A stretch of 64,000 nt of DNA from assembly GCF_008632125.1 (NCBI RefSeq), contig NZ_VWRN01000035.1, forward strand, positions 124,001 to 188,000. Reading direction: 5' to 3'. Of the stretch, positions 6,558-57,780 are shown piece by piece; the first letter of the stretch is position 1, and every line of letters starts with the position of its first letter. This DNA is from Cupriavidus cauae. GTDB taxonomy: Bacteria; Pseudomonadota; Gammaproteobacteria; Burkholderiales; Burkholderiaceae. The notes below the pieces were generated by a model, which worked only from the letters and a program-made list of their open reading frames with translations, had not been told where the DNA came from and did not search any database. The translations under genes and the position numbers were made by a program.

Positions 6558-9467
6558 ATGACCCCTCGCGCCGCGCCAGGCCGACAAGAAGCGCCATCGG
6601 ACGATGGCCGGCAACCCTTCGCGCTGTTTCGCGGTGACCGCGGCGCGGCCGCCCTCGAGGGGCTGCTCAACGCGCTGCCCCATCCGGTACTGGTCAAGGA
6701 CCGCGCGCATCGCTGGCTGCTGTTGAACGACCAGATGTGCGAGCTGATGGGCCACAGCCGCGCGACCCTGCTCGGCCGGACCGATCACGACTTCCTGCCC
6801 AAGGAACAGGCCGACGGCTATTGGGCGGTCGACGACGAGGTGTTCGACACCGGCGAGGAGCGCGAGGTCGAGGAGACCCTGACCGCCGCCGACGGCAGCA
6901 AGCGCGTGCTGGCCACCCGCAAGCGCCGCGTCATGCTGGCCGGACAGGGCGGGGCCCCGATGCCCGTCGTGATCGCCTCGATCATCGATATCACCGACAT
7001 CCGCCGGGCCGAGAGCGCGCTGCGCGAGAGCGAAGAGCACTACCGTCATTCGGTCGAACTCAATCCACAGGTGCAGTGGACCGCCGACGCGCAAGGCCTG
7101 GTGTCCGAAGCCGGGCCGCGCTGGGAGGAACTGACCGGCATGGCGGTGGAGCAGGGCATGGGGACCGGCTGGACCGGCCAGGTCCACCCCGACGATCTCG
7201 ACGAAACGCTGCGGCGCTGGCAGGCCAGCGTCGACAGCGGGGCGCCGTTCGACAAGGCCTTCCGGCTGCGCATGCGCGGCGGCGAATACCGCTGGTTCCG
7301 CTCGCGCGCCGCCGCCCGTCGCGACGGCGAGGGCCGCGTGCTGCGCTGGTACGGCACGCTGGAGGACATCGACGATCGCATGCGCGCCGAGGCGGCGCTG
7401 CGCGAGAGCGAACGATTCAGCCGCAGCATCCTGGAAAACAGTCCGAACTGCATCCGCGTGCTCGATCTGGACGGACGCGTGCTGTACGCCAACGCGACCA
7501 CCTACCGCCTGCTCGAGATCGAAGACGACGAACCGGTGCTCGGCGAGCGCTGGATCGACCTGATTCCGCAAGGCTGCCGTACGAATGCGGGCAAGGCGCT
7601 GGACGCGGCGCGCGCGGGCGGCATCGGCCGCTTCACGATCCGCCGCCATACCCGCAGCGGCGCCGTCCAGTGGCTCGACACGGTGACGGCGTCGATTCCC
7701 GGCGAGCAGGGCCGGCCGGCCCGCCTGCTGGCGATCTCGCTGGACGCCACCGAGGCGCGCGAGGCCCGCGAGGCCGCCGACCGCGCGCAACGCGAGGCGC
7801 AGCAGCTGGCCCAGCGGCTGTCCGCGGTGCTGGAGAGCACCATGGACAGCGTGATCGTGATCGATCGCGACTGGCGCCTGACCTACTTCAACGGCAACGC
7901 CGCGCGCGCCTTGCAGGAGCGCGCTCCCGCCATCGGCCGCAGCCTGTGGGACATGTTTCCCGAGGAAGCGGACGGCGTGTTCGCGCGGCACTACCGGCGC
8001 GCCCTGGACGAGCAGGTGCCGGTGGCCTTCGAGGAATACCTGCCGCCGCTGGCGATCTGGCTCGAGGTGCACGCCTATCCGACGCCCGAGGGCCTGTCGA
8101 TCTTCTTCCGCAACATCACCGAACGGCGCCGCGCCGAACAGGAGCGCCTGGCCGCGCAACAGCACCTGGCCTATCTGAGCCGGCACGATGCGCTGACCGG
8201 CACGCCGAATCGCGTCGCCTTGCGCGAGCATCTGGACCTGCTGCTGCGCGAGCGCAGCCGCGCCGCCCTGCATTGCCTCGACCTGAGCGGCTTCAAGGCC
8301 GTCAACGATACCTTCGGCCATGCGGTCGGCGACGCCGTGCTGCGCCAGGTTGCCGACCGGCTGCGCAGTTGCCTGACCGAGGCCGATACCGTCGCGCGGC
8401 TGGGCAGCGACGAATTCGTGGTGGTACAGACGCCCGTGGCCGATGGCGAGCAGGCGGCCGCGCTGGCGCGCCGCATCCAGGGATGCCTGTCCGAGCCGTT
8501 CACGATCGAAGGGCATACCGTCACCATCGGCGCGAGCGTCGGCATTGCGCTCGCGCCGGAACACGGCGACCGGCCCGACGACCTGCTGCGCGCCGCCGAT
8601 ATCGCGCTCGACCACGCCAAGCGCGAGGGCGCGTCCAGCGTGCTGGCCTTCCACGCCGACATGGACGCGCAACTGCGCGCCCGCGTGGCGATCAAGCGCC
8701 ATCTGCACCAGGCGCTGGCCGACGGACAGTTCCTGCTGCATTACCAGCCGGTGTACGACCTCCGTTCGGGACAGATCCGCTGCTTCGAGGCGCTGCTGCG
8801 CTGGCAGCATCCCGACCGCGGCATGATTTCGCCGGCCGAGTTCGTGCCGATGGCCGAAGAAACCGGCCTGATCGTGCCGCTCGGCGCCTGGGTGTTGCGC
8901 GAGGCGTGCCGGCAGGCCGCGGCGTGGCCGGCGTCGGTGTCGATGGCCGTCAACCTGTCGCCGCTGCAGTTCCGCGATCCGGCGCTGGTCGATACGGTGC
9001 GGCAGGCGCTGCGCGACGCAGGGATATCGCCCCAACGGCTGCAACTGGAGATCACCGAATCGGTGCTGCTGCAGGAGAGCCAGTCGAACCTGTCGACGCT
9101 GCAGGCGCTGCGCCAGATCGGCGTGCGCATTGCGATGGACGACTTCGGCACCGGCTATTCGTCGCTGGGCTATCTGCGCAGTTTTGCCTTCGACAAGATC
9201 AAGCTCGATCGCTCCTTCGTCACCGATCTTCACGGCGGCAACGAGGGGCGCGCGATCCTGCACGCGGTGGCGAGCCTCGGCGCGGCGTTCAAGCTTGTCA
9301 CCACCGCCGAGGGCATCGAGACCGCGAGCCAGCTCGCCGCGGTGCGCGAGGAGGGCTACGACGAGGGGCAGGGCTACCTGTTCAGTCCGCCGGTGCCGGC
9401 GGAGCAGGCCGCTCGCCTGCTGGAGCGCGGCGCCAGCGAGCATATCGCCGGGCGCCCCGCTTCATGA
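6558..9467 (+). CDS. multi-PAS GGDEF/EAL protein, probable c-di-GMP phosphodiesterase
   Basis: A cytoplasmic signalling protein of 969 residues from this ATG; the frame opens 30 codons earlier at a GTG, and neither start has a convincing ribosome site. Four PAS-type sensor segments (about 35-150, 157-275, 287-405, 425-540) precede a GGDEF domain and an EAL domain. The cyclase signature is GSDEF (616-620) instead of GGDEF, and the position of the inhibitory RxxD site reads TEAD. The EAL side looks intact: EALLRW at 744, NLSPLQF, ITESVLL, DDFGTGYSSL and KLDRSF. The likely net activity is c-di-GMP hydrolysis, with the GGDEF domain regulatory, though some GSDEF proteins keep cyclase activity. No transmembrane segment was seen. 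Confidence 0.9.
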   Translation: MTPRAAPGRQEAPSDDGRQPFALFRGDRGAAALEGLLNALPHPVLVKDRAHRWLLLNDQMCELMGHSRATLLGRTDHDFLPKEQADGYWAVDDEVFDTGEEREVEETLTAADGSKRVLATRKRRVMLAGQGGAPMPVVIASIIDITDIRRAESALRESEEHYRHSVELNPQVQWTADAQGLVSEAGPRWEELTGMAVEQGMGTGWTGQVHPDDLDETLRRWQASVDSGAPFDKAFRLRMRGGEYRWFRSRAAARRDGEGRVLRWYGTLEDIDDRMRAEAALRESERFSRSILENSPNCIRVLDLDGRVLYANATTYRLLEIEDDEPVLGERWIDLIPQGCRTNAGKALDAARAGGIGRFTIRRHTRSGAVQWLDTVTASIPGEQGRPARLLAISLDATEAREAREAADRAQREAQQLAQRLSAVLESTMDSVIVIDRDWRLTYFNGNAARALQERAPAIGRSLWDMFPEEADGVFARHYRRALDEQVPVAFEEYLPPLAIWLEVHAYPTPEGLSIFFRNITERRRAEQERLAAQQHLAYLSRHDALTGTPNRVALREHLDLLLRERSRAALHCLDLSGFKAVNDTFGHAVGDAVLRQVADRLRSCLTEADTVARLGSDEFVVVQTPVADGEQAAALARRIQGCLSEPFTIEGHTVTIGASVGIALAPEHGDRPDDLLRAADIALDHAKREGASSVLAFHADMDAQLRARVAIKRHLHQALADGQFLLHYQPVYDLRSGQIRCFEALLRWQHPDRGMISPAEFVPMAEETGLIVPLGAWVLREACRQAAAWPASVSMAVNLSPLQFRDPALVDTVRQALRDAGISPQRLQLEITESVLLQESQSNLSTLQALRQIGVRIAMDDFGTGYSSLGYLRSFAFDKIKLDRSFVTDLHGGNEGRAILHAVASLGAAFKLVTTAEGIETASQLAAVREEGYDEGQGYLFSPPVPAEQAARLLERGASEHIAGRPAS

Positions 9468-9517
9468 GCGTGACTTCTATGCGCATGACTTTACGAGCGT
9501 GCCTTTACGACCGTCGG
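9461..9517. repeat. degenerate tandem repeat (about 14-bp unit) starting in a stop codon
   Basis: About four copies: TTCATGAGCGTGACT, TCTATGCGCATGACT, TTACGAGCGTGCCT, TTACGACCGTCGG. The first copy contains the TGA of the GGDEF/EAL gene. The array fills most of the gap to the convergent gene ending at 9520. Confidence 0.6.
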
Positions 9518-9519
9518 CC

Positions 9520-13142: not shown

Positions 13143-13145
13143 ATC

Positions 13146-14249: not shown

Positions 14250-15109
14250 GCGCGGCGATTGCGGACAAGGCAAAGGCGACCGCGGTGCAGGGACCGGCTG
14301 GGTTGCATCCACAAAAGAACGACGGGACGGGTGGGGTCATTGAGCGCGAGGGAGCCGGCGCGCGCATCGAGGTACGACAGGTCAGCCACTGGTTCGGGGA
14401 CGGCGAGACACGGCTGCAGGTGCTCGACCGGGTCGATCTGAAGGTAGAGCCGGGGGAATTCGTTGCGCTGCTGGGGCCCAGCGGCTGCGGCAAGTCGACC
14501 TTGCTGCGACTGGTTGCGGGCCTCGATGCGCCGGTGGAGGGTCGAATCCTGCAGGACGGCGCGACGATCGCCGAGCCGGACCCGGCGCGCATCGTCGTGT
14601 TCCAGGACCCGACGCTGTTTCCGTGGCGGCGCGTCTGGGACAACGTGGCCTTGGGCCTGCAGGCGCGCGGCCTGCTCGGCCGCGAACATCATCGCGTCGA
14701 CGCGGCGCTCGAACGCGTGGGCCTGAAGGACTTCGCGCGCGCCTTTCCGCATCAGCTGTCGGGCGGCATGGCGCAGCGCGTGGCGCTGGCACGTGCGCTG
14801 GTCAACGATCCGCGCCTGCTGGTCCTGGACGAGCCGCTCGGCAAGCTCGATTCGCTGACGCGGCTGGCGATGCAGAGCGAGCTGGTCGCGCTGTGGCAAC
14901 GCGCCGGGTTCTCGGCCCTGCTGGTCACGCACGATGTCGAGGAGGCGCTGTTCCTGGCGCAGCGCGTGATCGTGTTCAGCGATCGGCCGGCGCGCATCCG
15001 CGCGGAGATCGAGGTCGATCTGCCGTATCCGCGCCATCGCGGCGATCCGCGGCTGACCGAGATGCGGCACGAGGCGCTGCGGCATCTGGGACTGGACGCG
15101 AGCTGGTGA
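14243..15109 (+). CDS. ABC transporter ATP-binding protein (SsuB/TauB-like)
   Basis: A 288-residue ATPase that energises the upstream permease. Walker A is GPSGCGKST, the Q-loop region reads VVFQDPTLFPWRRV, the signature is LSGGMAQR, Walker B is LLVLDEP and the switch histidine lies in LLVTHDVEEA. About 45 extra residues precede the usual start of the domain. The frame is open far upstream inside the permease gene, but the overlapping ATG is the natural coupled start. The stop codon is followed immediately by a 12-bp tandem array. Confidence 0.93.
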   Translation: MVSAAIADKAKATAVQGPAGLHPQKNDGTGGVIEREGAGARIEVRQVSHWFGDGETRLQVLDRVDLKVEPGEFVALLGPSGCGKSTLLRLVAGLDAPVEGRILQDGATIAEPDPARIVVFQDPTLFPWRRVWDNVALGLQARGLLGREHHRVDAALERVGLKDFARAFPHQLSGGMAQRVALARALVNDPRLLVLDEPLGKLDSLTRLAMQSELVALWQRAGFSALLVTHDVEEALFLAQRVIVFSDRPARIRAEIEVDLPYPRHRGDPRLTEMRHEALRHLGLDASW

Positions 15110-15228
15110 TGGAGGAAGCGTTGCGGGAGGCGTTGGAGGGGGCGTTGGAGGGGGCGTTGGAGGGTGCGTTGAAGGAGGCGTTGGCGCAAGCGTTGAACGC
15201 AGCGTCGGGGGGAGCCTTCGGTGACGCC
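15109..15228. repeat. tandem array, ten 12-bp units, directly after the ATPase stop codon
   Basis: Ten units in exact 12-base phase with core TTGGAGGGGGCG; two central copies are identical and the outer ones diverge. The first unit begins on the last base of the ATPase stop codon. A 46-codon frame (ATG at 15109) runs through it, encoding a repetitive Ala/Leu/Glu peptide (EGALEGALEGAL). It has no homology that I recognise and is better read as an open by-product of a 12-base period than as a gene. Confidence 0.85.
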
Positions 15229-15245
15229 GCGGCGCGAACGGTCCG

Positions 15246-16433
15246 ATGAACGGCGTGGTATTGCCGCCCTGGCTCGATACGCTGTTGGCCATCGTCGAGC
15301 AGGCGCAGTTCGGCCTGCTGCGGCTATGGCACTGGCTGGGGCTGACCGGCGACGCGCACGGACAGCCGGCCTGGCCCTGGAGCCATCGCATCGCCGGCGA
15401 AACGCTGCTGATCGATCTCGGCGTGGCAAGGCAACTGGCGTGGACAGGGATCGCCGTCGCGCTGTCGCTGGTGGCGATTGTGCTTGCGCTGCCATGGCGG
15501 CGCCGGCGCGTGCTGTTGCTGACGATCGCGGCCGCGAGCCTGCTGTTTGCACCCTGGCCTGCGCCGGCGCTGCTGTTCGTGCCGGCGGCGCCGACCAGCT
15601 TTCATGCGAGTCCGACCGGATTTTCTGTGGAAGCGATTGCCGTCGGCGCGCGAATCTATGGGCAGCATTGCGCGGCCTGCCACGGCGACGACGGCCGCGG
15701 CGAAGGGCCGATGGCGGCGACGCTGCCGCGTTGGCCGCCAACGCTGGTCGGCCCCTTGCTCGGACGCCGTGCCGATGGCGAGCTGTTCTGGCATATCGCC
15801 GATGGCATGCGCGATGACGATGGCCGCCTCGTGATGCCGGCGTTTGCCGGCGTATTGCGCGATGACGAAATCTGGGCCGTGCTCGACTACGCCAAGGCGC
15901 TCGCGGCGGGCGAGGGTGCGAAGTCGGCCGGCAGCTGGCCGATGGCGGTACCGGTTCCCGATATGGCGATACGCTGCGGCGCCGATGCGCCGCGCCGGCT
16001 GGCGCGGTGGCGCGACGGCCAGCGGCTGCGGCTGGTCGCCTTCGACGGCTCGCCCGATCGCATTCCGCTCGAGGATCCACGCTTTCTCACGCTGCTGGTG
16101 ACGCCCGACGGCAGGCCGCCCGCCGCCGTGCCGCAGTTTCGCAGCGAGTGCACGGCGGTGTCGCCGCAGGCCTGGGATATCGTCGCGCGGCTTGGCGGCG
16201 TCGCGCCGGAACGCCTTGCCGGCACCGAGCTGCTGGCCGATCGCAACGGCTGGCTGCGTGCACGCGGCACGCCGCAGCAGAAGGGCTGGTCCGATGCCGA
16301 TCTGCTGTGCGAGTCGGGCCAGCCGGCGAAGTCAGCATCGGGCGGCAAGCCTGCACCCGATGGGCTGACTGCGCTGCTGTTGCGGATGGACGCCGAGCCG
16401 GTGCGCTTCGTCAAGGGCGGGATCGTGCATTAG
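15246..16433 (+). CDS. membrane-anchored monohaem cytochrome c protein
   Basis: A 395-residue protein. Two hydrophobic segments (about 62-80 and 85-110) are followed by a class I cytochrome c domain with haem motif CAACHGDDGRG near residue 140 and a likely Met ligand in VMPAFAGVL. The C-terminal 170 residues (from about PVPDMAIRCG) have no family I recognise and carry three further cysteines. It follows the ABC operon on the same strand after the 12-bp array and could share its transcript. A cytochrome is not a normal partner of a sulfonate transporter; it might take electrons from a periplasmic sulfite- or thiosulfate-type oxidation, but no such enzyme is encoded here. Confidence 0.75.
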   Translation: MNGVVLPPWLDTLLAIVEQAQFGLLRLWHWLGLTGDAHGQPAWPWSHRIAGETLLIDLGVARQLAWTGIAVALSLVAIVLALPWRRRRVLLLTIAAASLLFAPWPAPALLFVPAAPTSFHASPTGFSVEAIAVGARIYGQHCAACHGDDGRGEGPMAATLPRWPPTLVGPLLGRRADGELFWHIADGMRDDDGRLVMPAFAGVLRDDEIWAVLDYAKALAAGEGAKSAGSWPMAVPVPDMAIRCGADAPRRLARWRDGQRLRLVAFDGSPDRIPLEDPRFLTLLVTPDGRPPAAVPQFRSECTAVSPQAWDIVARLGGVAPERLAGTELLADRNGWLRARGTPQQKGWSDADLLCESGQPAKSASGGKPAPDGLTALLLRMDAEPVRFVKGGIVH

Positions 16434-16538
16434 CGGAAGGCCGGCAAGCGGAGCGCGGCCGTGAGCCGCGGTGAGCGGGGGGGGGGCGGCGGTGAGCGGC
16501 AGTGCGCGGCGCTGTGCGGTGGCGTGCAGCATTGCGCC
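16434..16538. repeat. G-rich junction with a 10-base G run
   Basis: The gap between the convergent cytochrome and LysR genes is built of loose GGTGAGCGGC-like words and holds an uninterrupted run of ten G (16477-16486). The run lies outside both genes, so changes in its length would not shift a reading frame. Confidence 0.55.
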
Positions 16539-17542: not shown

Positions 17543-18544
17543 ATGAGCGACATCCATCTGACCTACCTCAACGGCAAGGACATCGCGCAGCTGGCGATGA
17601 CCGACGCGGAGATCCTTGCCGCGGTCGAGCAGGGGCTGGTGGCGCAGGGCAATGGGCAGACCGTGATCGAGCCGCGCATGCATCTGATCCCGGACCCCGC
17701 CTTCAACGGGCACTTCAATGTGCTGCGCGGTTATGTCGCGCCGCTCGGGCTGGCGGGGGTCAAGATCGTCGGCGACTTCGTCGACAACTACAAGCAGGGC
17801 CTGCCGTCGGAAATGGCGCTGCTGAACCTGTTCGACCCGCGCACCGGCATGCCGGTCGCCGTGATCGACGCGACTTTCATCACCGATGCCCGCACGGGGG
17901 CGCTGACCGCGCTGGGCGCGCGTCATCTGGCGCGGCGCAACAGCAAGGTGCTCGGCCATATCGGCGCGCGCGGGACCTCGTACTGGAATATCCGGCTGCT
18001 CGACAGCCTGTTCGACTTCGACGAGATCCGCGTGCACTCGCGCCGCCCCGAAAGCCGCAACGCGTTCGCCGCCAGGCTGGAGCGCGACCTGGGCAAGCCG
18101 ATCGTCGTGACCGAGGACTGGGAGTCGTGCGTGCGCGGCGCCGATATCGTCGTCGAAGCCTCGCGGCTGGAACGGCCGACGCCGCTGCTGAAGACCGAAT
18201 GGATCTCGCGCGGCGCCTTCGTCGTGCCCTACGGCACGATGAGCGCGGTCGAGCTGTCGCTGACCGACATCATGGACAAGCTGGTGGTCGACGACTGGAG
18301 CCAGTGCAAGGGAGGCATGTTCGGCTCGCTGCGCGCCCATGTCGAGGCCGGCAAGCTGTCGGAGCAGACGCTGTACGCCGAGCTCGGCGAGATCGTTGCC
18401 GGCCGCAAGCCCGGGCGGCAGAGCGACGACGAGACCAATCTGTTCTGGCATCGCGGCCTGTCGCTCAGCGATATCGCGCTCGGCCACGCGATCATGCAGA
18501 AGGCGCAGCGCATGGGCATCGGGCAAAGGCTGGTCTACGCATGA
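17543..18544 (+). CDS. ornithine cyclodeaminase / mu-crystallin family protein
   Basis: A 333-residue NAD(P)-dependent enzyme of the OCD/mu-crystallin family. Motifs include MHLIPDP, GVKIVGDF, MALLNLFDPRTGMPVAVIDA, TDARTGALTALGARHLAR and the dinucleotide-binding part near residue 140 (VLGHIGARG). Members deaminate ornithine, reduce cyclic imino acids or act as alanine/opine-type dehydrogenases, so the substrate is not set. AGGAGA precedes the ATG. The next gene overlaps by four bases (ATGA), showing coupling to the PhnD-like protein. Confidence 0.88.
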   Translation: MSDIHLTYLNGKDIAQLAMTDAEILAAVEQGLVAQGNGQTVIEPRMHLIPDPAFNGHFNVLRGYVAPLGLAGVKIVGDFVDNYKQGLPSEMALLNLFDPRTGMPVAVIDATFITDARTGALTALGARHLARRNSKVLGHIGARGTSYWNIRLLDSLFDFDEIRVHSRRPESRNAFAARLERDLGKPIVVTEDWESCVRGADIVVEASRLERPTPLLKTEWISRGAFVVPYGTMSAVELSLTDIMDKLVVDDWSQCKGGMFGSLRAHVEAGKLSEQTLYAELGEIVAGRKPGRQSDDETNLFWHRGLSLSDIALGHAIMQKAQRMGIGQRLVYA

Positions 18545-19476
18545 TCGCCAATGCACGGATGTACTCGGTGTCGCCGCAGGCCGGCGCGGCCTGGCGGACG
18601 CTGCTGATGCGCGTGGCACAGCGCGCCGGCGTGGAGTTGGCCTATGTCGAGCACGATGCGCCCGCGCCGATCCGCGCGCTGTGGGAGCGCGACGATTGCG
18701 CCTGCGTGCTGATGTGCGGCTATCCGTTTGCGACGGCGCCGGTGCGCTACCGGTTGCTGGCGGCGCCGGTGCCCGACCTGCCGCGCTATGGCGGCCTGCC
18801 GCGCTACTTCAGCGAGTTCATCGTGCGTGCCGATTCGCCGCGCGCCTCGCTGGCGCAGACCTTCGGCAAGCGCCTTGCGTGCATGTTGCCGGAATCCAAT
18901 TCCGGCTATAACGCGCCGCGCCGCTATCTGATGGAGTTCGGGCTGGTCGACGGGGCGTTGTATCTGCCGACCGAAGCGGCCACGCCGACCCCGCAGGACG
19001 TGATCGATGCCGTCATTGCAGGCAGGGCGGAGGTTGGCGTGGTCGACAGTTATGTGCTGGACCTGCTGCGTCTGCATGTGCCCGGGCGGATCGCCGCCTT
19101 GCGCACGCTGGCGGTGACGCAGTCCTCGCCGATTCCGCCGCTGGTCGCCTCGCCCGGCATCGACGAGGAGATTGCCGCGCGGCTGCGCGGGGCATTGCTG
19201 GACGCGCATCGCGATCCGGACTGTGCCGAAGCGCTCGCCACGCTGCGGCTGGCGCGCTTTGCCGCGGTGGAGCCGGGCGATTACCGGCGCCTGGTCCGGT
19301 GGGCGCGCGAGGCTGACCACGCGGGCGTCGCGCTGACCGCGGCGACGCCCGTGGCGCAGGGGCTTTCGTCGCCGCTGTCGGAGCCATCGTCGCGACCGTC
19401 GTCGCAGCCGCTGTCGGAGCCACTGTCAGAACCTTTGTCGAAGCCCTTGCCGCACCCCTCCGATCCATTGGCCTGA
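18541..19476 (+). CDS. PhnD-like substrate-binding protein lacking a signal peptide
   Basis: A 311-residue protein of the phosphate/phosphonate-binding (PhnD) fold: MYSVSPQAGAAWRTLL at the start, CVLMCGYPFA, the conserved LPESNSGYNAPRRYL and the VGVVDSYVLDLLR segment. The fold begins within a few residues of the start, so no export signal is visible. The four-base overlap with the upstream gene leaves little room for another start. It may act in the cytoplasm as a ligand sensor or enzyme partner of the OCD-family protein. Residues 275-306 are eight LxxP-type tetrapeptides. Confidence 0.75.
   Translation: MIANARMYSVSPQAGAAWRTLLMRVAQRAGVELAYVEHDAPAPIRALWERDDCACVLMCGYPFATAPVRYRLLAAPVPDLPRYGGLPRYFSEFIVRADSPRASLAQTFGKRLACMLPESNSGYNAPRRYLMEFGLVDGALYLPTEAATPTPQDVIDAVIAGRAEVGVVDSYVLDLLRLHVPGRIAALRTLAVTQSSPIPPLVASPGIDEEIAARLRGALLDAHRDPDCAEALATLRLARFAAVEPGDYRRLVRWAREADHAGVALTAATPVAQGLSSPLSEPSSRPSSQPLSEPLSEPLSKPLPHPSDPLA
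19363..19458 (+). repeat. coding tandem repeat, eight 12-bp units (LSEP tail)
   Basis: Eight in-phase 12-base units with core CTGTCGGAGCCA encode LSSP, LSEP, SSRP, SSQP, LSEP, LSEP, LSKP, LPHP. They form the disordered-looking C-terminal tail of the PhnD-like protein, six codons before its stop. Confidence 0.85.
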
Positions 19477-30763: not shown

Positions 30764-30801
<38 letters not shown>

Positions 30802-33961: not shown

Positions 33962-34011
33962 CCGTAGAACGCCGCAGGCAACCGTACAAGGCCGTACAAC
34001 GCCGTACAAGG
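33962..34011. repeat. tandem array, five 10-bp units
   Basis: Five in-phase units (CCGTAGAACG, CCGCAGGCAA, CCGTACAAGG, CCGTACAACG, CCGTACAAGG) begin 12 bases after the aldehyde dehydrogenase stop and end 48 bases before the aldolase start. Confidence 0.85.
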
Positions 34012-34059
34012 CTCGGTCGCCAGGCCCATCGAACCCGCATTGCTTTGACAGGACCCGTC

Positions 34060-36387: not shown

Positions 36388-36473
36388 CGTTCGAGCTGGC
36401 AGGCTCAGGGTGGCACTTTCGAGTCCGGTCGTTCGAGCTGGCATGTTCAAGCCGGGCCGTTCAAGCCGGCTCG
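36388..36473. repeat. tandem array, six 14-bp units ending in a stop codon
   Basis: The word TTCRAGCYGG recurs at 36390, 36418, 36432, 36446 and 36460, all in 14-base phase, with a decayed copy at 36404. The last unit includes the stop codon (36461-36463, complement) of the minus-strand DJ-1/PfpI gene. The array fills most of the gap to the convergent FAD-dehydrogenase gene. Confidence 0.8.
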
Positions 36474-41438: not shown

Positions 41439-41446
<8 letters not shown>

Positions 41447-41526
41447 GGCTGCCCGCGCCAACCCGCATTGTGCCGACCCGTATTGAGCCAACCGTGTTGG
41501 GCCAACCGTATTGAGCCAACCCGGGC
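41439..41526. repeat. tandem repeat, 14-15 bp units starting in the gsiA stop codon
   Basis: The word TATTGAGCCAACC or a close variant begins at 41441 (containing the gsiA TGA), 41466, 41481, 41495 and 41509; the last three are in 14-base phase. The array fills most of the gap before gsiB. Confidence 0.75.
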
Positions 41527-45165: not shown

Positions 45166-46365
45166 ATGCCGCACGAACCCTCCGTCGCGCCGGACTTGCC
45201 TGCACCGGGCGTTCCTCCGCATATCGGCGACCTGCCGGCGGGCGCACGCAATGCGATCACCGATGTGCCGGGCGTGCGCGTCGGACATTGCACGCTGGCC
45301 GATGGCGCGGTGCAGACCGGCGTCACGGTGGTGCTGCCGCACGCCGGCGATCCGTATCTGGACAAGGTTCCGGCCGCGGCCGCGGTGATCAACGGCTTCG
45401 GCAAGAGCATCGGGCTGGTGCAAGTCGACGAGCTTGGTGTACTGGAGACGCCGATCGCGCTGACCAACACCTTTGCGGTCGGCGCCGTGGCGCAGGCGCA
45501 GATCCGGCAGGCGATCGCGGCCCACGCCGAGATCGGCCGCGGCTGGCCCACCGTCAATCCGCTGGTGTTCGAATGCAATGACGGCTATCTGAACGACATC
45601 CAGGCGATGGCCATCGGCGAAACGCACTATCGGCAGGCCTGCGCCGCGGCCGGCGCCGATGTTGCGCAGGGCGCGGTCGGGGCAGGGCGCGGCATGTCGG
45701 CGTTCGGCGTCAAGGGCGGCATCGGCACGGCGTCGCGGCTTGCGGGGCCTTATCGCGTGGGTGCGCTGGTGCTGGCGAACTACGGCACGCCGGCGATGCT
45801 GACGGTCGCCGGCAGGCGGGTCGGTGCCGAACTGGCGCAGCGGCTGGCCGCGCCCACTGCAACGGACGCCGCCACAACGAACGCCGCCACAACGAACGCC
45901 GCCACAACGAACGCCGCCGCAACGGACGCTGCGCCCGCTGCAACGGACGCGGGGCGGGCCGCAACGGACGCCGCGCAGACTGCCGCCGATTCCGGGCCGG
46001 AGAAGGGCTCGATCATCATGATCGTTGCCACCGACGCGCCGCTCGATTCCCGCCAGCTGGGACGGCTGGCGCGGCGTGCCGGCGCGGGGCTGGCACGCAC
46101 CGGATCGGTCTACGGTCATGGCTCCGGCGATATCGCGCTGGCCTTCAGCACCGCCTATACCGTGCCGCACGACGCCGCCACGCCGATGCCGGCCGTCGCG
46201 ATGGTCCACGAGACCGAGCTCGATCCGCTGTTCCATGCCGTGGCCGACAGCGTCGAGCAGGCCATCCTGCATGCGCTGTGGCACGCCGAGACCGTCAGCG
46301 GCCGCGACGGCCATTGCCGCCGCAGCCTGCTGTCGTGGATGCCTGAATTGAATTTCGCCGACTGA
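45166..46365 (+). CDS. P1-family (DmpA/BapA-like) self-processing aminopeptidase
   Basis: A 399-residue member of peptidase family S58/P1. Motifs: GNAITDVPGVRVGHCTL-type opening (NAITDVPGVRVGHCTLADG), TVVLPHAGDPYLDKVPAAAA, NPLVFECNDGYLND and GVKGGIGTASRL. The family cleaves itself at a Gly-Ser bond to form alpha and beta subunits; the matching site here is Gly281-Ser282 in EKGSIIMIVATDAP. Residues of about 230-272, just ahead of it, are an Ala/Thr/Asn/Asp repeat absent from usual members. The enzyme may remove N-terminal or beta-amino-acid residues from imported peptides. It follows gsiD by 15 bases. Confidence 0.9.
   Translation: MPHEPSVAPDLPAPGVPPHIGDLPAGARNAITDVPGVRVGHCTLADGAVQTGVTVVLPHAGDPYLDKVPAAAAVINGFGKSIGLVQVDELGVLETPIALTNTFAVGAVAQAQIRQAIAAHAEIGRGWPTVNPLVFECNDGYLNDIQAMAIGETHYRQACAAAGADVAQGAVGAGRGMSAFGVKGGIGTASRLAGPYRVGALVLANYGTPAMLTVAGRRVGAELAQRLAAPTATDAATTNAATTNAATTNAAATDAAPAATDAGRAATDAAQTAADSGPEKGSIIMIVATDAPLDSRQLGRLARRAGAGLARTGSVYGHGSGDIALAFSTAYTVPHDAATPMPAVAMVHETELDPLFHAVADSVEQAILHALWHAETVSGRDGHCRRSLLSWMPELNFAD
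45858..45979 (+). repeat. in-frame tandem repeat (15-bp and relatives) in the P1 peptidase
   Basis: Perfect 15-base units GCCGCCACAACGAAC (AATTN in protein) in the centre are flanked by diverged relatives of GCAACGGACGC. The translated segment (about residues 230-272) is Ala/Thr/Asn/Asp-rich and ends ten residues before the predicted self-cleavage site. Confidence 0.9.
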
Positions 46366-46367
46366 AC

Positions 46368-46441
46368 CGCGCACGCCGCCGCTGCGGTCGGCGCGCGCCA
46401 TTCCCGCGTGCGTCGCCGCTGCGTTTTGCGCGCGCCATTCC
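46368..46441. repeat. two 37-bp direct repeats filling a gene junction
   Basis: Units 46368-46404 and 46405-46441 differ at few positions and share the ends GTCGCCGCTGCG-like and GCGCGCCATTCC. They take up all but three of the bases between the P1 stop and the M55 start, so the downstream gene has no ordinary ribosome site. Confidence 0.85.
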
Positions 46442-46442
46442 C

Positions 46443-49687: not shown

Positions 49688-49698
49688 TATCGGCGGCG

Positions 49699-50901: not shown

Positions 50902-51005
50902 GTCCGATCAAGCGTCCGATCAAGCGTCCGATCAAGCGTCCGATCAAGCGTCCGATCAAGCGCCGATCAAGCGCCGATCAAGCGCCGATCAAGCGCCGAT
51001 CAAGC
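50902..51005. repeat. tandem array, five 12-bp then four 11-bp units
   Basis: Five perfect copies of GTCCGATCAAGC (50902-50961) are followed by four copies of GCCGATCAAGC (50962-51005), one base shorter. The last copy contains the stop codon of the minus-strand acyl-CoA dehydrogenase gene (51000-51002). This is the most regular array in the window. Confidence 0.95.
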
Positions 51006-52154
51006 GCCGGCCTGCGCCAGCGTGCGCTTGGCGATATTGAGCTGGTGGATCTGGCTGGTGCCCTCGTACAGGCGGAACAGCCGCACATCGCGATAGAAGC
51101 GCTCGATGCCGTAGTCGGCGATATATCCGTAGCCGCCGAACATCTGCACGCAGCGGTCGGCGACGCGCCCGCACATCTCCGAGGCGAAGTACTTGCAGAT
51201 CGACGCCTGCATCGTCACGTCCTCGCCGCGGTCGCGCTGGCGCGCGGTCTCGAGCACCAGCGCGCGGGCCGCGTGGATTTCGGTCTGGCAGTCGGCGATC
51301 ATCGCCTGCACCAGCTGGAAGCTCGACAGCGGCTCGCCGAACTGCTTGCGCGTGCGGACGAAGCGGATCGCATCGTCGAGCATGCGGATGGCCGGGCCGA
51401 TGCACAGCGCCGACAGATGGATGCGCTGCTTGTTCAGCACCTTCATCGCCGTACGGAAGCCCTGGCCCTCGACGCCGCCGATCAGGTTGGCGGCGGGCAC
51501 GCGGCAATCGTCGAAATGGACCTCCGACACCGGCGAGCCTTCCTGCCCCATCTTGCGGTAGGCCGACCCGGTGCTCAGGCCCGGCGTGCCGCGCTCGACC
51601 AGGAAGGCCGAGATGCCGGAGGCGCCGGTGGTCTCGGGATCCGTGCGCGCCATCACCGTGAACAGCCCGGCGATCGGCGCATTGGTGATGAAGCATTTGG
51701 TGCCGTTGAGCACATAGTGGTCGCCATCGCGGCGCGCCGACGTGGTCAGCGCCGTTGCATCCGAGCCGGCCTCGGGCTCGGTCAGCGCGAACGAGCCGGT
51801 GATCTCGCCGCTCGCCAGGCGCGGCAGATAGCGCTGCTTCTGCTCTGGCGTGCCATCGGCAACCAGCGCTTCCGAGCCGATGCCGGTATTGGTGCCGACG
51901 CGCGCGCGGAAGGCCACCGAGCACTGCGACAGTTCGATCGCGGCCAGCACCAGTTCCTCGGTCGTCATGCCCGCACCGCCGTAGGTCTCCGGAATCGAGA
52001 AGCCGAACAATCCGATGTCGGCCATCTCCTTGACCAGGTCGGCCGGCACCTCGTCGCGCGATGCCACCTCGGCCTCGCGCGGCACCAGGCGCTGCTGCAC
52101 GAAGCGGCGCAGCTGCGCCAGGAATGCGGGGTAGGTCTCGGGGTCTCGGATCAT
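51000..52154 (-). CDS. acyl-CoA dehydrogenase
   Basis: A 384-residue FAD flavoenzyme introducing a C2-C3 double bond into acyl-CoA. Motifs: ETYGGAGMTTEE, FALTEPEAGSDATALTT, FITNAPIAG, KMGQEGSPVSEVHFDDCRVP, FGEPLSSFQLVQ, and the C-terminal MFGGYGYIADYGIERFYRDV, where Glu of YGIER is the likely base. AGGAAG precedes the ATG. It is divergent from the IclR pair, which may control it. Substrate unknown; glutaryl- or short branched-chain acyl-CoA would be reasonable. Confidence 0.92.
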   Translation of the reverse strand: MIRDPETYPAFLAQLRRFVQQRLVPREAEVASRDEVPADLVKEMADIGLFGFSIPETYGGAGMTTEELVLAAIELSQCSVAFRARVGTNTGIGSEALVADGTPEQKQRYLPRLASGEITGSFALTEPEAGSDATALTTSARRDGDHYVLNGTKCFITNAPIAGLFTVMARTDPETTGASGISAFLVERGTPGLSTGSAYRKMGQEGSPVSEVHFDDCRVPAANLIGGVEGQGFRTAMKVLNKQRIHLSALCIGPAIRMLDDAIRFVRTRKQFGEPLSSFQLVQAMIADCQTEIHAARALVLETARQRDRGEDVTMQASICKYFASEMCGRVADRCVQMFGGYGYIADYGIERFYRDVRLFRLYEGTSQIHQLNIAKRTLAQAGA

Positions 52155-52258
52155 CGTGATGGCTTCCTGTTTGGGTTGGCGGTGGAGCGCGGGACATGCC
52201 CCGCGGTCCGACATCGGAGTGGAAGGCAGCGTAGCAATGCGGGCGGAAATAGTGGATC

Positions 52259-52281
52259 GTTGTTTCGCTATCTTGAACAAC
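52259..52281. promoter_or_regulatory. possible IclR operator between acyl-CoA dehydrogenase and iclR genes
   Basis: GTTGTT (52259) and AACAAC (52276) are inverted arms, and GTTTC...GAAC within them resembles the GTTCG-type palindrome found before atoE. It lies in the divergent gap. Confidence 0.45.
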
Positions 52282-52380: not shown

Positions 52381-53166
52381 ATGGCTCCACGCCCCCATCA
52401 TCCCGATCCCGCCTTCGCCACCACGCTGGCGCACGGCCTGTCGCTGCTGCAGTGCTTCGGCATCGGCGACAGCGTGCTCAGCAACAAGGAACTGGCCGAG
52501 CGCACCGGCCTGTCGCCGGCGACCGTCAGCCGCCTGACCTACACGCTGGCGGCACGCGGCCTGCTGCGCTACGACGCGCAATTGCGCCGCTATCGGCTGG
52601 GATCGACCACGCTGGCGCTCGGCTACCCGCTGCTGGCCACGCTGCGCATCCGGCAATTGGCGCGGCCGCTGATGAAGCAGCTGGCCGACGAGATCGACGG
52701 TTCCGTGTCGCTGGGCCTGCGCGACCGCACGCAGATGGTCTACGTGGAGACGAGCCGCGGCCACGACGCGATGGCGTTCCGGCCCGATATCGGCGCGACG
52801 CTGCCGATGCTGCCGACCGCGATCGGGCGCGCCTGGCTGTGCACGGCGTTGCCGCGGGAAAGCGCGCCGGTGCTGGCGGCATTGCGCAAGGCCGATCCGG
52901 CGGAATTCCGGCGGCAGGCGTCCGCGCTCGAGCGCGCCCGGGAAGAGATGGCCGAGTTCGGCTTCTGTACCTCGCGCGGCGAATGGCAGAGCGACATCCA
53001 TGCCGTGGCGGCGCCGCTGCCGACGCGTATCGATGGGGAAGTCATGGTGTTCAACTGCGGCGTGCTCGGCGTGCGGATGACCCCGCGCAAGCTCGAGCGG
53101 CAGATGGGCCCGCGGCTGCTGAGGATGGTCGCGAAGGTCGAGGCCGCGCTGAGGAGGAGCCGATGA
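52381..53166 (+). CDS. IclR-family regulator, first of a tandem pair
   Basis: A 261-residue IclR protein from this ATG (a GTG 13 codons earlier is possible). The helix-turn-helix lies at about 20-70 (LSNKELAERTGLSPATVSRL, TYTLAARGLLRYD), followed by the effector domain with RQLARPLMKQLADEIDGSVS, LRDRTQMVYVETSRG and PMLPTAIGRAWL. Family members such as PcaR and CatR-type proteins control aromatic catabolism. The stop overlaps the start of the next, closely related gene (ATGA). Confidence 0.9.
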   Translation: MAPRPHHPDPAFATTLAHGLSLLQCFGIGDSVLSNKELAERTGLSPATVSRLTYTLAARGLLRYDAQLRRYRLGSTTLALGYPLLATLRIRQLARPLMKQLADEIDGSVSLGLRDRTQMVYVETSRGHDAMAFRPDIGATLPMLPTAIGRAWLCTALPRESAPVLAALRKADPAEFRRQASALERAREEMAEFGFCTSRGEWQSDIHAVAAPLPTRIDGEVMVFNCGVLGVRMTPRKLERQMGPRLLRMVAKVEAALRRSR

Positions 53167-54146
53167 CGCGGCCTGGCTCGCGCTCTGACTCGCGCCCTGG
53201 ATTGCGCTCCGGCTCGCGCTCGGAGTCGCGCCAAGACTCGCGCTCCGACTCGCGCTCCGACTCGCGGTCCGACTCGCCGTCCGACGCGCGCTCGGGCAAG
53301 CGTTCCGATGTGCGCGCCGGCTCGCGGCCCGGTTCCCGCGCCAGCGCGGCGCAGCCCCTGCCGCGCTCCAACGAGCCGGCCGACAAGGACCGGCAGTTCG
53401 CCGCCACGCTGGCGAACGGCATCGACATCCTGCTGGCCTTCGACAGCGGCGACGCGATGCTCGGCAATCGCGATTTCGCCGAGCGTACCGGACTGTCGAA
53501 GACCACCGTTGCCCGGTTGACGCACACGCTGACCGCGTTGGGCTATCTGCGCCACGACACGGTGCTGCGCAAATACCGGCTCGGCGCGGCGGTGCTGTCG
53601 ATGGGCTATCCGCTGCTGGCCAGCATGCATCTGCGCCAGCTGGCGCGGCCGCTGATGAAGGCGCTGGCGGACCGGCTGTGCGGCGCGGTATCGCTCGGTA
53701 TCCGCGATCGCACGCAGATGATCTATGTCGAGACCGCGCGCTCGACCGACAGCCTGATCGTGACGCCGGAGATCGGCGCCGCGCTGCCGATGCTGTCCAC
53801 CGCCATCGGCCGCGCCTGGCTCAGCCACGCCCCGGCGCACGAACGCGAGGCGGTGCTGAACCAGCTGCGGCTGCAGGACCCCGACGCCTTCGCCCGCGCC
53901 CAGCCGCGCCTGGCCGATGCCCGCCGCGACCTGGAGCGGCAAGGCTACTGCGCCAACCGCGCCGAATGGCGTCCCGAGGTCTACGGCTTCGCGGTGCCAA
54001 TGTGCCAGCCGGTCGGCTCGCAATTGTTCGTGCTGAACTGCGGCGTGCCGGCCGCGCAGGGCAGTTTCGCGGCGATCGAGAAGCAGGCCGGGCCGCAGTT
54101 GCGCGCGCTGATGCTCGATATCGAGAGGATGCTGGGGTTGCGATAG
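53163..54146 (+). CDS. IclR-family regulator, second of a tandem pair, with Arg/Ser-rich N-terminus
   Basis: A 327-residue IclR protein. Residues 4-59 are fourteen four-residue units of the type DSRS or GSRS; the IclR domain begins at about 75 (QFAATLANGIDILLAFDSGD, FAERTGLSKTTVARLTHTLT). The effector part parallels its neighbour (RQLARPLMKALADRLCGAVS, IRDRTQMIYVETARS, PMLSTAIGRAWL), pointing to tandem duplication. The repetitive basic N-terminus is not a normal part of the family and may simply be a translated repeat. Confidence 0.9.
   Translation: MTRPGSRSDSRPGLRSGSRSESRQDSRSDSRSDSRSDSPSDARSGKRSDVRAGSRPGSRASAAQPLPRSNEPADKDRQFAATLANGIDILLAFDSGDAMLGNRDFAERTGLSKTTVARLTHTLTALGYLRHDTVLRKYRLGAAVLSMGYPLLASMHLRQLARPLMKALADRLCGAVSLGIRDRTQMIYVETARSTDSLIVTPEIGAALPMLSTAIGRAWLSHAPAHEREAVLNQLRLQDPDAFARAQPRLADARRDLERQGYCANRAEWRPEVYGFAVPMCQPVGSQLFVLNCGVPAAQGSFAAIEKQAGPQLRALMLDIERMLGLR
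53172..53339 (+). repeat. in-frame tandem array, fourteen 12-bp units
   Basis: Fourteen units in exact 12-base phase with core TCCGACTCGCGC begin six bases after the stop codon of the first iclR gene and are read as the N-terminus of the second. Central copies are most alike; outer ones diverge. Confidence 0.9.
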
Positions 54147-54354: not shown

Positions 54355-54374
54355 CCCCGTCCTATAGCCAATGT

Positions 54375-54398: not shown

Positions 54399-54457
54399 AA
54401 ATGCGGCACTCGCGCAGCAACACACGACGCCTTTCGGCACGTTTTTGGAGACAGATC

Positions 54458-55801: not shown

Positions 55802-55858
55802 CGATCCGGGTCTGGCCATCGGTCACCGCGCTTTGCCAACGACAACACAGGAGACACC

Positions 55859-56155
55859 ATGCCGTACATCATCGAGACCTTCGACAAGCCCGACCACCAG
55901 CACGTACGCAAGGCCCAGCGGCCGGCGCATCTGGACTTCCTCGAAGCCAACAAGTCGCTGCTGCTGGCCTGCGGTGCCAAGCTGAACGACGATGGCAGCG
56001 ATGCGGGCGGTGGTGTCTATATCGTCGATGTCGAGACCCGCGAGGCCGCGCAGGCGCTGATCGAAGCCGATCCCTTCCATCAGGCGGGCCTGTTCGCCGA
56101 AGTGCGGATCACGCGCTGGCGCAAGGCCTATCTCGATGGCGTCTGCTGTCTCTGA
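55859..56155 (+). CDS. YciI-family protein
   Basis: A 98-residue ferredoxin-like-fold protein with the YciI pattern: conserved HLDFL near residue 24, GGGVYIVDVETREAAQAL and EADPFHQAGLFAEVRI. Related proteins include muconolactone-isomerase-like and 5-chloromuconolactone-type enzymes, so a role in an aromatic or lactone pathway is plausible beside catC. AGGAGA precedes the ATG. Confidence 0.88.
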   Translation: MPYIIETFDKPDHQHVRKAQRPAHLDFLEANKSLLLACGAKLNDDGSDAGGGVYIVDVETREAAQALIEADPFHQAGLFAEVRITRWRKAYLDGVCCL

Positions 56156-56237
56156 CTGACATCCCGATCGATCGGACCGCGCGGGCCGGCGCATCGGCGC
56201 TGGCACCGCGGCGCGTCCGTGCCGGAGGCTATCCCCG

Positions 56238-57293
56238 ATGCGATGGAAACAACGGCCGGAAGGCTCCAACTGGGGCGATTTCGGCGCCGACGACCAGCTC
56301 GGCCGTCTGAACCTGATCACCGCGGACAAGATCCGCGCCGCCGCGCAGGAGATCCGCAGCGGCCGCACGTTCTGCCTGTCGCTGCCGCTCGATCTGCCGG
56401 GTGGCAATGCGCTGAACGTGCGCCGGCATCCGCCGGTGCTGCGGCCCACCTATCGCGACGACATTCCGTACGTCAATTTCCCGCTGGCCAGGGTCGATGC
56501 CAATGCGCTCGACGTGCTCAGCGACGACCAGGTCCTGCTGTCGCTGCAGTATTCGACGCAGTGGGACTCGCTGGCCCACGTCGGCGCGCTGTTCGATGCC
56601 GACGGCGATGGTGTGGCCGAACGCGTCTATTACAACGGCTTCCGGCCCAATGCGGAGATCGTCGGGCCGGTCGACTATGCCGAGGCCGATGATTTCGCCG
56701 CGCATCCCTGCGGGCATGACCATAGCCACGCCGATGCGCTGGGCATCGAGACGCTGGCCGTGCATGGCGCGCAGGGGCGGGGCGTGCTGGTCGATCTGGC
56801 GGAGCATTTTGGCCGCGATTTCCGCACCGTCGGCTACGACGACCTGATGCGCGTGATGGACGCCGATCAGGTCGCCGTCGAGACCGGCGACATCCTGGTG
56901 CTGCGCACCGGCTTCGCCGAGATGGTGCTCGAGATGGGCGGCAGGCCCGATGCGCACGCGCTGCATCACAGCTGCTGCGCGCTCGATGGCCGCGACGAGC
57001 GGCTGCTGCAATGGATCACCGATGCGGGCATCGCCGCGCTGGCCGCCGACAACTACGCGGTCGAACGCTTTCCGGCCCGGCCACCGGCGCCGGGGCAGGG
57101 CGCGGTGCCGATGCTGCCGCTGCATCATCACTGCCTGTTCAAGCTGGGTCTGCCACTGGGCGAGCTGTGGTATCTGCGCGATCTCGCCGCGTGCCTGCGC
57201 GCAGAAAGGCGTTCGCGCTTTTTCCTGACCGCGCCGCCGCTGCGCCTGCCCGGCGCGATGGGCTCGCCCGTGACGCCGATCGCCACGGTATGA
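56238..57293 (+). CDS. cyclase-family (kynurenine-formamidase-like) metal hydrolase
   Basis: A 351-residue member of the Pfam Cyclase family. The usual metal-binding HxGTHxDxPxH box is represented by DSLAHVGALFDADGDG near residue 110, with HALHHSCCAL later. Homologues hydrolyse amides or lactones, for example N-formylkynurenine or isatin. Position between YciI and catC suggests a ring-cleavage or lactone step upstream of the beta-ketoadipate branch. Substrate not known. Confidence 0.85.
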   Translation: MRWKQRPEGSNWGDFGADDQLGRLNLITADKIRAAAQEIRSGRTFCLSLPLDLPGGNALNVRRHPPVLRPTYRDDIPYVNFPLARVDANALDVLSDDQVLLSLQYSTQWDSLAHVGALFDADGDGVAERVYYNGFRPNAEIVGPVDYAEADDFAAHPCGHDHSHADALGIETLAVHGAQGRGVLVDLAEHFGRDFRTVGYDDLMRVMDADQVAVETGDILVLRTGFAEMVLEMGGRPDAHALHHSCCALDGRDERLLQWITDAGIAALAADNYAVERFPARPPAPGQGAVPMLPLHHHCLFKLGLPLGELWYLRDLAACLRAERRSRFFLTAPPLRLPGAMGSPVTPIATV

Positions 57294-57338
57294 CCTCGCT
57301 TACTCTCTTCACCGTACCGCTACAACAAGGAGATCGCC

Positions 57339-57623
57339 ATGCTGTTCATGGTTGAAATGACCGTCCGCATTCCCCATTCGGCCGACCCGCAGGCCGTCGA
57401 CAAGCTGAAGGCCGACGAGAAGGCGTTTTCGCAGCAGCTGCAGCGCGAAGGCAAGTGGCGCCACCTGTGGCGCGTGGTGGGCCAGTACGCCAACGTCAGC
57501 ATCTTCGACGTCAAGGACAACGACGAGCTGCATACGCTGCTGACCTCGCTGCCGCTGTATCCGTATATGGAGATGAAGGTCACGCCGCTGGCGCAACACG
57601 GTTCCGCGATCGCGCAGAACTGA
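57339..57623 (+). CDS. catC: muconolactone delta-isomerase
   Basis: A 94-residue enzyme converting muconolactone to 3-oxoadipate enol-lactone in the catechol branch of the beta-ketoadipate pathway. The opening LFMVEMTVRIPHS, the KLKADEKAFSQQLQREGKW segment, WRVVGQYANVSIFDVKDNDE, and LPLYPYMEMKVTPLAQHGSA match CatC well. AAGGAGA precedes the ATG. catA, catB and the pcaIJF genes are not in the window. Confidence 0.95.
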   Translation: MLFMVEMTVRIPHSADPQAVDKLKADEKAFSQQLQREGKWRHLWRVVGQYANVSIFDVKDNDELHTLLTSLPLYPYMEMKVTPLAQHGSAIAQN

Positions 57624-57638
57624 TGTCTGTGTCGCTCC

Positions 57639-57658
57639 GCGCGGGCGCTTTCCCGCGC
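57639..57658 (+). terminator. hairpin after catC
   Basis: GCGCGGG and CCCGCGC pair around CGCTTT, 16 bases after the catC stop. Without a T-run it is more likely a message-stabilising stem than a full terminator, since pcaD follows. Confidence 0.45.
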
Positions 57659-57690
57659 CGCGCGGGGCATCGATCGATCGTCGTCCCGAG

Positions 57691-57780
57691 TACCGCCGCG
57701 AATCGCCGAGCATTACCGAGCATCACCGAGAATCGCTGGGTACCGCCGACAACTGCTGAGAACCGCTGAGAACCGCTTCC
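57691..57780. repeat. tandem array, nine 10-bp units, ending at the pcaD start
   Basis: Nine in-phase decamers of the type AACCGCTGAG or AATCGCCGAG run from 57691 to 57780, three bases before the pcaD ATG. Two central-right copies are nearly identical; the rest diverge. The array occupies the position where a ribosome site would be expected. Confidence 0.9.

What the first reader, a model, noticed from the sequence alone, without database searches (positions are those of the whole stretch)
9461..57780. Private minisatellites at gene junctions, many anchored on stop codons
At least twelve junctions hold short tandem repeats: 9461 (about 14 bp), 15109 (12), 19363 (12, coding), 30764 (7), 33962 (10), 36388 (14), 41439 (14-15), 45858 (15, coding), 46368 (37), 50902 (12/11), 53172 (12, coding), 57691 (10). 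Units are unrelated between loci, so this is not one dispersed element. In five cases the array contains or directly follows a stop codon (9465, 15109, 36461, 41444, 51000), and 53172 starts six bases after one. That suggests a local amplification process acting at gene ends, with some arrays later captured into coding frames. I do not know of a described system like this.
Basis: partly seen in the sequence, partly recalled or inferred. Interest (0 to 1): 0.8.

Follow-up and report, generated by a model that had tools for sequence, protein, structure and literature searches.

The report
Private minisatellites at Cupriavidus gene junctions
This bacterium carries many short tandem repeats, each with its own unit and mostly longer here than in its sister species, but they avoid gene starts and broken reading frames rather than grow from stop codons, so they look like ordinary minisatellites in a repeat-rich lineage.

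Summary
All 12 listed loci show repeats, two of them too weak for TRF; 9 of 12 reach TRF score 50. The window is an unnamed Cupriavidus near C. gilardii. Sisters show copy-number change, seed units and other arrays at the same junctions. In 1,062 kb of this genome, 445 arrays have 445 different units; three shuffles give 40, 56 and 47. Arrays lie within 30 bp of stops more than uniform placement predicts (118 versus 45.2), but placement within the same junction predicts as many within 10 bp (61 versus 58.8); in convergent junctions positions look random (30 of 52 versus 32.0). Starts are avoided and coding arrays mostly have triplet periods (187 of 217). So repeats probably arise genome-wide by slippage and selection filters them. 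A Burkholderia pseudomallei survey reports the same 3' bias (85 versus 19). Less ordinary: about twice its sisters' arrays in matched DNA, cause unknown. A small excess of arrays with an edge in the stop codon remains (14 versus 5.7).

The parts
9466..9514 (.). Degenerate 14-bp array filling the convergent junction after the EAL/GGDEF gene (stop 9465-9467) and before the stop of an acyl-CoA dehydrogenase-like gene (9520)
   Evidence: TRF; junction 52 bp here, 4 bp in G010, 11 bp in G051; G011 not comparable
15110..15215 (+). 12/24-bp array between an ABC-transporter ATPase gene (stop 15107-15109) and a cytochrome c gene (start 15246)
   Evidence: TRF; no such array in 3 of 3 sisters; junction 136 bp against 52, 64 and 52
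19371..19427 (+). 12-bp coding array in the C-terminal tail of gene 18541-19476
   Evidence: TRF score 44; different lengths in sisters
30764..30801 (.). Perfect 7-bp array (5.4 copies) between a TctC-type receptor gene and a galactarate/altronate dehydratase gene
   Evidence: TRF; G051 has the same array, G011 its own 7-bp array, G010 none called
33982..34012 (.). 10-bp array downstream of an aldehyde dehydrogenase gene
   Evidence: TRF; same length in G051, shorter in G011 and G010
36388..36469 (.). Weak, degenerate ~14-bp repeat reaching the 3' end of the DJ-1/PfpI gene (stop at 36461, minus strand)
   Evidence: Not called by TRF here; offset matches; arrays called in G051 and G010, the G051 junction longer
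41457..41521 (.). 14-bp array between a dipeptide ABC-transporter ATPase gene (stop 41444-41446) and a family 5 solute-binding protein gene
   Evidence: TRF; junction shorter in 3 of 3 sisters
45860..45929 (+). 15-bp coding array in a peptidase S58 gene (45166-46365)
   Evidence: TRF; length differences to the three sisters 30, 102 and 123, all multiples of 3 (from lengths)
46367..46442 (.). Two-copy 37-bp duplication between the S58 and M55 peptidase genes
   Evidence: 33 of 39 bases equal at offset 37; single copy in 3 of 3 sisters
50902..51009 (.). Nearly pure 12/11-bp array (9 copies, 98% match) running into the 3' end of an acyl-CoA dehydrogenase gene (minus strand, stop at 51000)
   Evidence: TRF; about 2 units in G051 and about 1 seed-like unit in G010 and G011 (read by eye)
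53177..53293 (+). 12-bp coding array in the N-terminal tail of the second of two adjacent IclR-family genes
   Evidence: TRF; IclR domains; different 12-bp arrays in G010 and G051, short in G011; length differences 96, 120 and 72, all multiples of 3 (from lengths)
57702..57777 (.). Degenerate 10-bp array between a muconolactone isomerase gene and an alpha/beta hydrolase gene
   Evidence: TRF; shorter in G051 and G010, right flank not found in the G011 stretch
16455..16519 (.).
   Evidence: TRF; junction 105 bp against 47, 34 and 43 in sisters
58534..58609 (.).
   Evidence: TRF; TRF reports no array at this junction in G010 and G051; left flank not found in the G011 stretch

Best explanation
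These are ordinary bacterial minisatellites (VNTR-type loci). Short duplications, mostly of about 7-40 bp, arise across the whole genome, probably by replication slippage, and grow and decay quickly, so each species has its own arrays. Selection then decides what is seen: inside genes mainly arrays that keep the reading frame survive; around gene starts they are removed, presumably because they disturb ribosome-binding sites and promoters; just downstream of genes they are tolerated, perhaps partly because repeating a unit that holds the stop codon leaves the protein unchanged. In short junctions this makes arrays touch stop codons. Shown here: private units, length and copy-number differences to sisters, seed-like units at some loci, avoidance of starts, no stop preference within junctions at the 10-bp scale, mostly triplet periods in genes, and about twice the arrays of sister species in matched DNA. 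Inferred: slippage as the mechanism; gain in this lineage rather than loss in the sisters (no tree with an outgroup was used); selection rather than mutation bias as the cause of start avoidance. The cause of the excess is unknown.
For: Sisters: of G000 junctions with arrays and an orthologue in the held stretches, the junction is longer by more than 5 bp in G000 than in G010 in 26 of 29, G011 10 of 11, G051 20 of 23. Stop side: 61 edges within 10 bp against 58.8 +- 5.1. Start side: 9 against 28.4 +- 4.5 (175 arrays of the first 902 kb); between two starts with at least 60 bp free 2 of 47 against 10.1 +- 2.6. Convergent junctions: 30 of 52 against 32.0 +- 2.9, and 14 of 33 against 14.5 +- 2.6 with at least 60 bp free. 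Arrays with midpoint in a gene: 187 of 217 with period a multiple of 3; between genes 97 of 228. Density in the last 60 bp of genes 0.33 per kb, first 60 bp 0.49, interior 0.22: no hot spot special to gene ends. Published parallel in B. pseudomallei: 609 arrays, 85 within 40 bp 3' and 19 within 40 bp 5' of genes, 175 in genes, all but 12 of the non-degenerate ones in triplet periods.
Against: Arrays whose edge falls inside the stop codon are over-represented (14 against 5.7 +- 2.3; P 0.001 to 0.007 over four nulls, uncorrected), the 11-20 bp bin too (24 against 13.2 +- 3.6), and edges within 30 bp are in excess in the plain null (100 against 85.2 +- 5.4, P 0.004), fading to P 0.12 when the 30 bp next to starts are closed. 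Density 31-60 bp after stops is 3.91 per kb against 1.28 in mid-junction and 1.68 at 31-60 bp before starts. Per base of sister sequence short junctions hold more G000 arrays than long ones (8.2, 3.3, 4.1, 1.5 and 0.9 per kb by rising length, G010, from 3, 3, 8, 6 and 12 arrays). Of 8 G010 junctions with arrays only 3 are longer in G010 and 4 are shorter. In the three sisters pooled, start avoidance between two starts is not significant (2 of 13 against 3.1 +- 1.5). Slippage was not observed, and the excess has no cause in the repair genes examined.
Confidence: 0.85

Rival explanations
1. A mutational process acts at gene ends (for example at transcription termination, R-loops or replication-transcription collisions) and seeds arrays there.
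For: Uniform placement over the sample puts 45.2 +- 6.0 of 445 arrays within 30 bp of a stop; 118 are observed; for starts 46.8 expected, 68 observed. Density 31-60 bp after stops is 3.91 per kb against 1.28 in mid-junction. Excess of arrays with an edge in the stop codon and in the 11-20 bp bin. Short junctions hold more arrays per sister base.
Against: No preference for stops at the 10-bp scale within the same junction or in convergent junctions, where start avoidance cannot act (the sisters pooled agree, 8 of 14 against 9.1 +- 1.3). The last 60 bp of genes are not richer in arrays than the first 60 bp.
Confidence: 0.08
2. This lineage has a repeat-mutator defect (for example in ssDNA exonucleases, proofreading or Pol I) that raises array birth genome-wide. 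This would add to the best explanation, not replace it.
For: About twice the arrays of each sister in matched orthologous DNA (73/36, 38/21, 51/28); higher rates both in genes and between them in the unmatched sample.
Against: recJ, xseA, mutS, polA, dnaQ, recG and sbcD are present and without inner stops in G000. G000-only changes at otherwise invariant positions: none in the matched parts of recJ, xseA, mutS and dnaQ, two in polA (G302A, E781D) against 2, 3 and 2 in the sisters. In about 20 kb around four repair genes G000 has 4 arrays, G011 6 and G051 7.
Confidence: 0.3
3. The arrays are functional: tuning of operon coupling, terminators or disordered protein tails.
For: The two coding arrays at 45860 and 53177 differ from 3 of 3 sisters by multiples of three (lengths). 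At 15110 an open frame bridges the upstream stop and the downstream start in all four genomes (read by eye).
Against: Junction lengths and sequences are freely variable; 20 loci of other Cupriavidus have a short junction at the place of 15110, without array as judged by eye.
Confidence: 0.05

Closest known systems
Tandem repeat / VNTR loci of Burkholderia pseudomallei K96243 (PMC1853098; passages and Table 1 seen)
   Same: GC-rich relative; many arrays, mostly intergenic, coding ones mostly in triplet periods, strong 3' over 5' bias (85 against 19 within 40 bp of genes), variable copy number
   Different: [quoted passage not shown] here intergenic periods peak at 11-14 bp, no consensus unit is shared among 445 arrays, and variation is shown only between species. 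Detection thresholds differ, so densities are not directly comparable
Tandem repeats of archaeal Borg elements (PMC9879509; abstract and part 1 of section 2.1 seen)
   Same: Recently formed, arising independently, often absent at the same site in near relatives, both intergenic and in-frame coding
   Different: Extrachromosomal elements of archaea, perfect repeats by the definition used there, enriched in adenine; here a bacterial genome with mostly degenerate arrays (median match 84% for periods up to 30)
MIRU repeats of Mycobacterium (recalled, no call)
   Same: Short repeats at gene junctions that can overlap stop and start codons
   Different: MIRUs are one dispersed family; here every unit is different

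Membership tests
Bacterial minisatellite / VNTR loci | Head-to-tail copies of a unit of about 5-100 bp beyond chance | tested here: met
   445 arrays in 1,062 kb against 40, 56 and 47 in three shuffles
Bacterial minisatellite / VNTR loci | Copy number or array content varies between related genomes at the same locus | tested here: met
   (12 reader junctions; 3 sisters, 2 for 9461 and 57691)
Bacterial minisatellite / VNTR loci | Copy number varies between strains of one species | not testable with these tools
   One genome per species is held for the window's species
Dispersed repeat family (REP, MIRU or IS-derived) | Units of different loci share one consensus | tested here: not met
   445 distinct units; near pairs 9 of 3,827, shuffled units 16
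   Within 10 bp 61 against 58.8 +- 5.1; convergent junctions 30 of 52 against 32.0 +- 2.9. Against this: excess in the stop-codon-edge bin (14 against 5.7), the 11-20 bp bin (24 against 13.2) and, in the plain null only, within 30 bp (100 against 85.2)
Repeat mutator by loss of a repair gene | A repeat-stability gene lost or damaged | tested here: inconclusive
   Seven genes present without inner stops; matched parts of five compared residue by residue. mutL, exoI, exoX, radA, uvrD and others were not tested

The most novel reading that the evidence does not exclude
In this lineage a so far unrecognised repeat-mutator state has about doubled minisatellite birth across the genome since its split from C. 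gilardii, with a small component that starts exactly at stop codons.
Probability: 0.1. Interest if true: 0.55.

Novelty: new member of a known kind. Interest (0 to 1): 0.25.

Why it matters
It shows how avoidance of gene starts, together with short junctions, can look like a process that acts at gene ends. It also gives a natural contrast, sister species at roughly 86-95% DNA identity in collinear blocks with a two-fold difference in minisatellite load, for asking what sets minisatellite birth rates in bacteria. If copy number also varies among strains, the arrays would serve as typing markers for this Cupriavidus group.

Tried and rejected
Stop anchoring: naive uniform placement supports it (118 against 45.2 within 30 bp), but same-junction placement, with and without closing the neighbourhood of starts, and convergent-only placement do not at the 10-bp scale. 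Finer bins keep an excess, reported under evidence against.

Loss of repair genes: seven families searched, in 8 genomes or 6; none missing or with inner stops in G000. Two first attempts at residue comparison picked antisense frames and are discarded; one search replaces them. Several rows cover only part of the protein (xseA above all, and its G051 row is cut by the contig end), so absence of unique changes holds for the compared parts only. recG and sbcD were checked for presence only.

A conserved small gene at 15109-15249: in 20 loci of other Cupriavidus (L257-L276; a first script found nothing) the junction is short and, by eye, without array; not pursued.

One repeat family: rejected. 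Assembly artefact: unlikely, since the sister genomes also carry arrays at some of the same junctions, but no reads were available.

Density: the unmatched comparison gave about three-fold for intergenic arrays; I rely on the matched two-fold. The three matched comparisons share part of the same G000 DNA and are not independent. Around four repair genes (about 20 kb per genome) there is no excess: G000 4, G010 3, G011 6, G051 7, G058 7, G001 3, G021 0, G041 2.

The gene finder was my own (codon log-odds, written); gene starts from it are less certain than stops. Numbers shift slightly with its training set (215 intergenic arrays, 216).
Full report
What is there. The window is G000:C29:124001-188000 of a 5.75 Mb genome in 74 contigs. 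Its acyl-CoA dehydrogenase (51000-52280) is 95-96% identical to that of three genomes, G051, G011 and G010. By match position and contig length these correspond to Cupriavidus sp. RH59_bin.035, C. gilardii USM5 and C. gilardii CCUG 38401 of the named collection, so the window belongs to an unnamed Cupriavidus close to C. gilardii. Large parts of the window are collinear with these three at about 86-95% DNA identity in the longer blocks.

Observation. TRF with score at least 50 of the 12 listed loci; 19371-19427 scores 44; 36388 and 46368 are not called, but 46368 is a clear two-copy 37-bp duplication and 36388 a weak repeat. TRF arrays in the window, 6 in the corresponding 65 kb of G010, 8 in 56 kb of G011 and 7 in 65 kb of G051; these sister stretches include some DNA that is not collinear with the window.

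Sister genomes. At 50902 the window has 9 copies, G051 about two units, G010 and G011 about one. The 46368 duplication is single in all three. At 53172 G051 and G010 carry different 12-bp arrays and G011 a short one. At 30764 G051 shares the array, G011 has another 7-bp array and none is called in G010. At 33962 G051 has the same length; at 36388 G051 is longer than the window. In the other 10 the window's junction is the longest of those found; for 9461 and 57691 only two sisters could be compared. Over the held stretches, junctions with an array in G000 are longer than in G010 in 26 of 29, G011 in 10 of 11 and G051 in 20 of 23. These junctions were chosen for having arrays in G000, so some bias is built in. 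In the reverse direction, of 8 G010 junctions with arrays 3 are longer and 4 shorter in G010 than in G000. No outgroup tree was used, so gain here and loss in the sisters were not told apart formally.

How many. In 1,062 kb of G000 (the window plus stretches taken by contig, not at random) there are 445 arrays (419 per Mb, 2.58% of bases); G010 has 166, G011 176, G051 203, G058 155 and G001 124 per Mb in their samples. Shuffles that keep codons in genes and dinucleotides between genes give 40, 56 and 47 in the G000 sample. In matched collinear segments G000 has 73 against 36 (G010, 214 kb), 38 against 21 (G011, 98 kb) and 51 against 28 (G051, 145 kb). The excess is uneven: contig C6 is low (83 plus 92 per Mb) and a 20-kb set around four repair genes shows none.

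Stops or starts. Placed uniformly, 45.2 +- 6.0 of 445 arrays would lie within 30 bp of a stop and 118 do; for starts 46.8 are expected and 68 observed. Because arrays are commoner between genes, this test is unfair. Moving each array at random within its own junction (215 intergenic arrays, 168 with a stop side) predicts 58.8 +- 5.1 stop-side edges within 10 bp; 61 are seen; edges at or over the stop are 46 against 45.0. Starts are avoided: 9 edges within 10 bp against 28.4 +- 4.5 (175 arrays of the first 902 kb). In convergent junctions, with a stop at each end and no start, 30 of 52 arrays lie within 10 bp of a stop against 32.0 +- 2.9; with at least 60 bp of free space 14 of 33 against 14.5 +- 2.6. 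In same-strand junctions with at least 60 bp free the median distance to the stop is 45.5 bp against 90.0 expected, the mirror of start avoidance. The sisters pooled give the same in convergent junctions (8 of 14 against 9.1 +- 1.3), but their start avoidance between two starts is not significant (2 of 13 against 3.1 +- 1.5).

Fourteen arrays have an edge inside the stop codon against 5.7 +- 2.3; the 11-20 bp bin holds 24 against 13.2 +- 3.6; and 100 edges lie within 30 bp against 85.2 +- 5.4, an excess that fades (P 0.047, 0.069, 0.12) as the surroundings of starts are closed to the null. Per base of sister DNA, short junctions hold more arrays than long ones, on small counts. I read the stop-codon-edge excess as arrays halted by the coding sequence, but it was picked out after the fact from several bins and this reading was not tested.

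Genes. Of 217 arrays with midpoint in a gene 187 have a period divisible by three; between genes 97 of 228. The coding arrays at 45860 and 53177 differ from all three sisters by multiples of three (lengths). Arrays are not denser in the last 60 bp of genes (0.33 per kb) than in the first 60 (0.49); the interior has 0.22. So amplification happens in genes too, and selection appears to keep mainly outcomes that preserve the frame.

Cause of the excess. recJ, xseA, mutS, polA, dnaQ, recG and sbcD are present and without inner stops in G000. Comparing the matched parts of the first five finds only two G000-only changes, in polA, no more than in the sisters. The cause is open.

Known or not. A 2007 survey of Burkholderia pseudomallei K96243 (PMC1853098, passages and Table 1 seen) lists 609 arrays, 85 within 40 bp 3' of genes and 19 within 40 bp 5', 175 in genes with all but 12 of the non-degenerate ones in triplet periods, and variable copy number among isolates. 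This is the same pattern in a related genus. Borg elements (PMC9879509, abstract and part of one section seen) are a second case of independent, fast-arising arrays. A study of small variable segments in bacterial genomes (PMC2884548, passages seen) treats minisatellites as a known, minor class and does not use the term stop codon. Searches for tandem repeat with Cupriavidus gilardii (0 papers) and for Cupriavidus with variable number tandem repeat (4 papers, none on this by title) found no earlier description for this group; other searches were made, seen as listings. I judge it a new example of a known kind, with a mildly interesting lineage excess.

Noticed in passing
window 15109-15249: The array lies in an open frame of 46 codons that begins on the upstream stop (TGATG) and ends on the downstream start (ATGA). 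By eye the three sisters also show an open frame there, with junction lengths differing by multiples of three; 20 loci of other Cupriavidus have only a short junction. Could be chance or translational coupling.
   Followed up: partly
window 53163-53345: The second of two adjacent IclR-family genes begins with a Ser/Arg-rich repeat tail encoded by the array, of different length and sequence in the sisters.
   Followed up: partly
genome sample G000: Intergenic array periods peak at 11-14 bp (78 of 175 arrays); no explanation was tested.
   Followed up: no
L152:954-1279: A 12-bp array of 27.4 copies at 96% match, the highest-scoring short-period array in the G000 sample.
   Followed up: no
G058: No sbcD match at E <= 0.001 in this Cupriavidus genome, while the other five of six searched have one over the cut-off, partial at a contig end in G010.
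   Followed up: no
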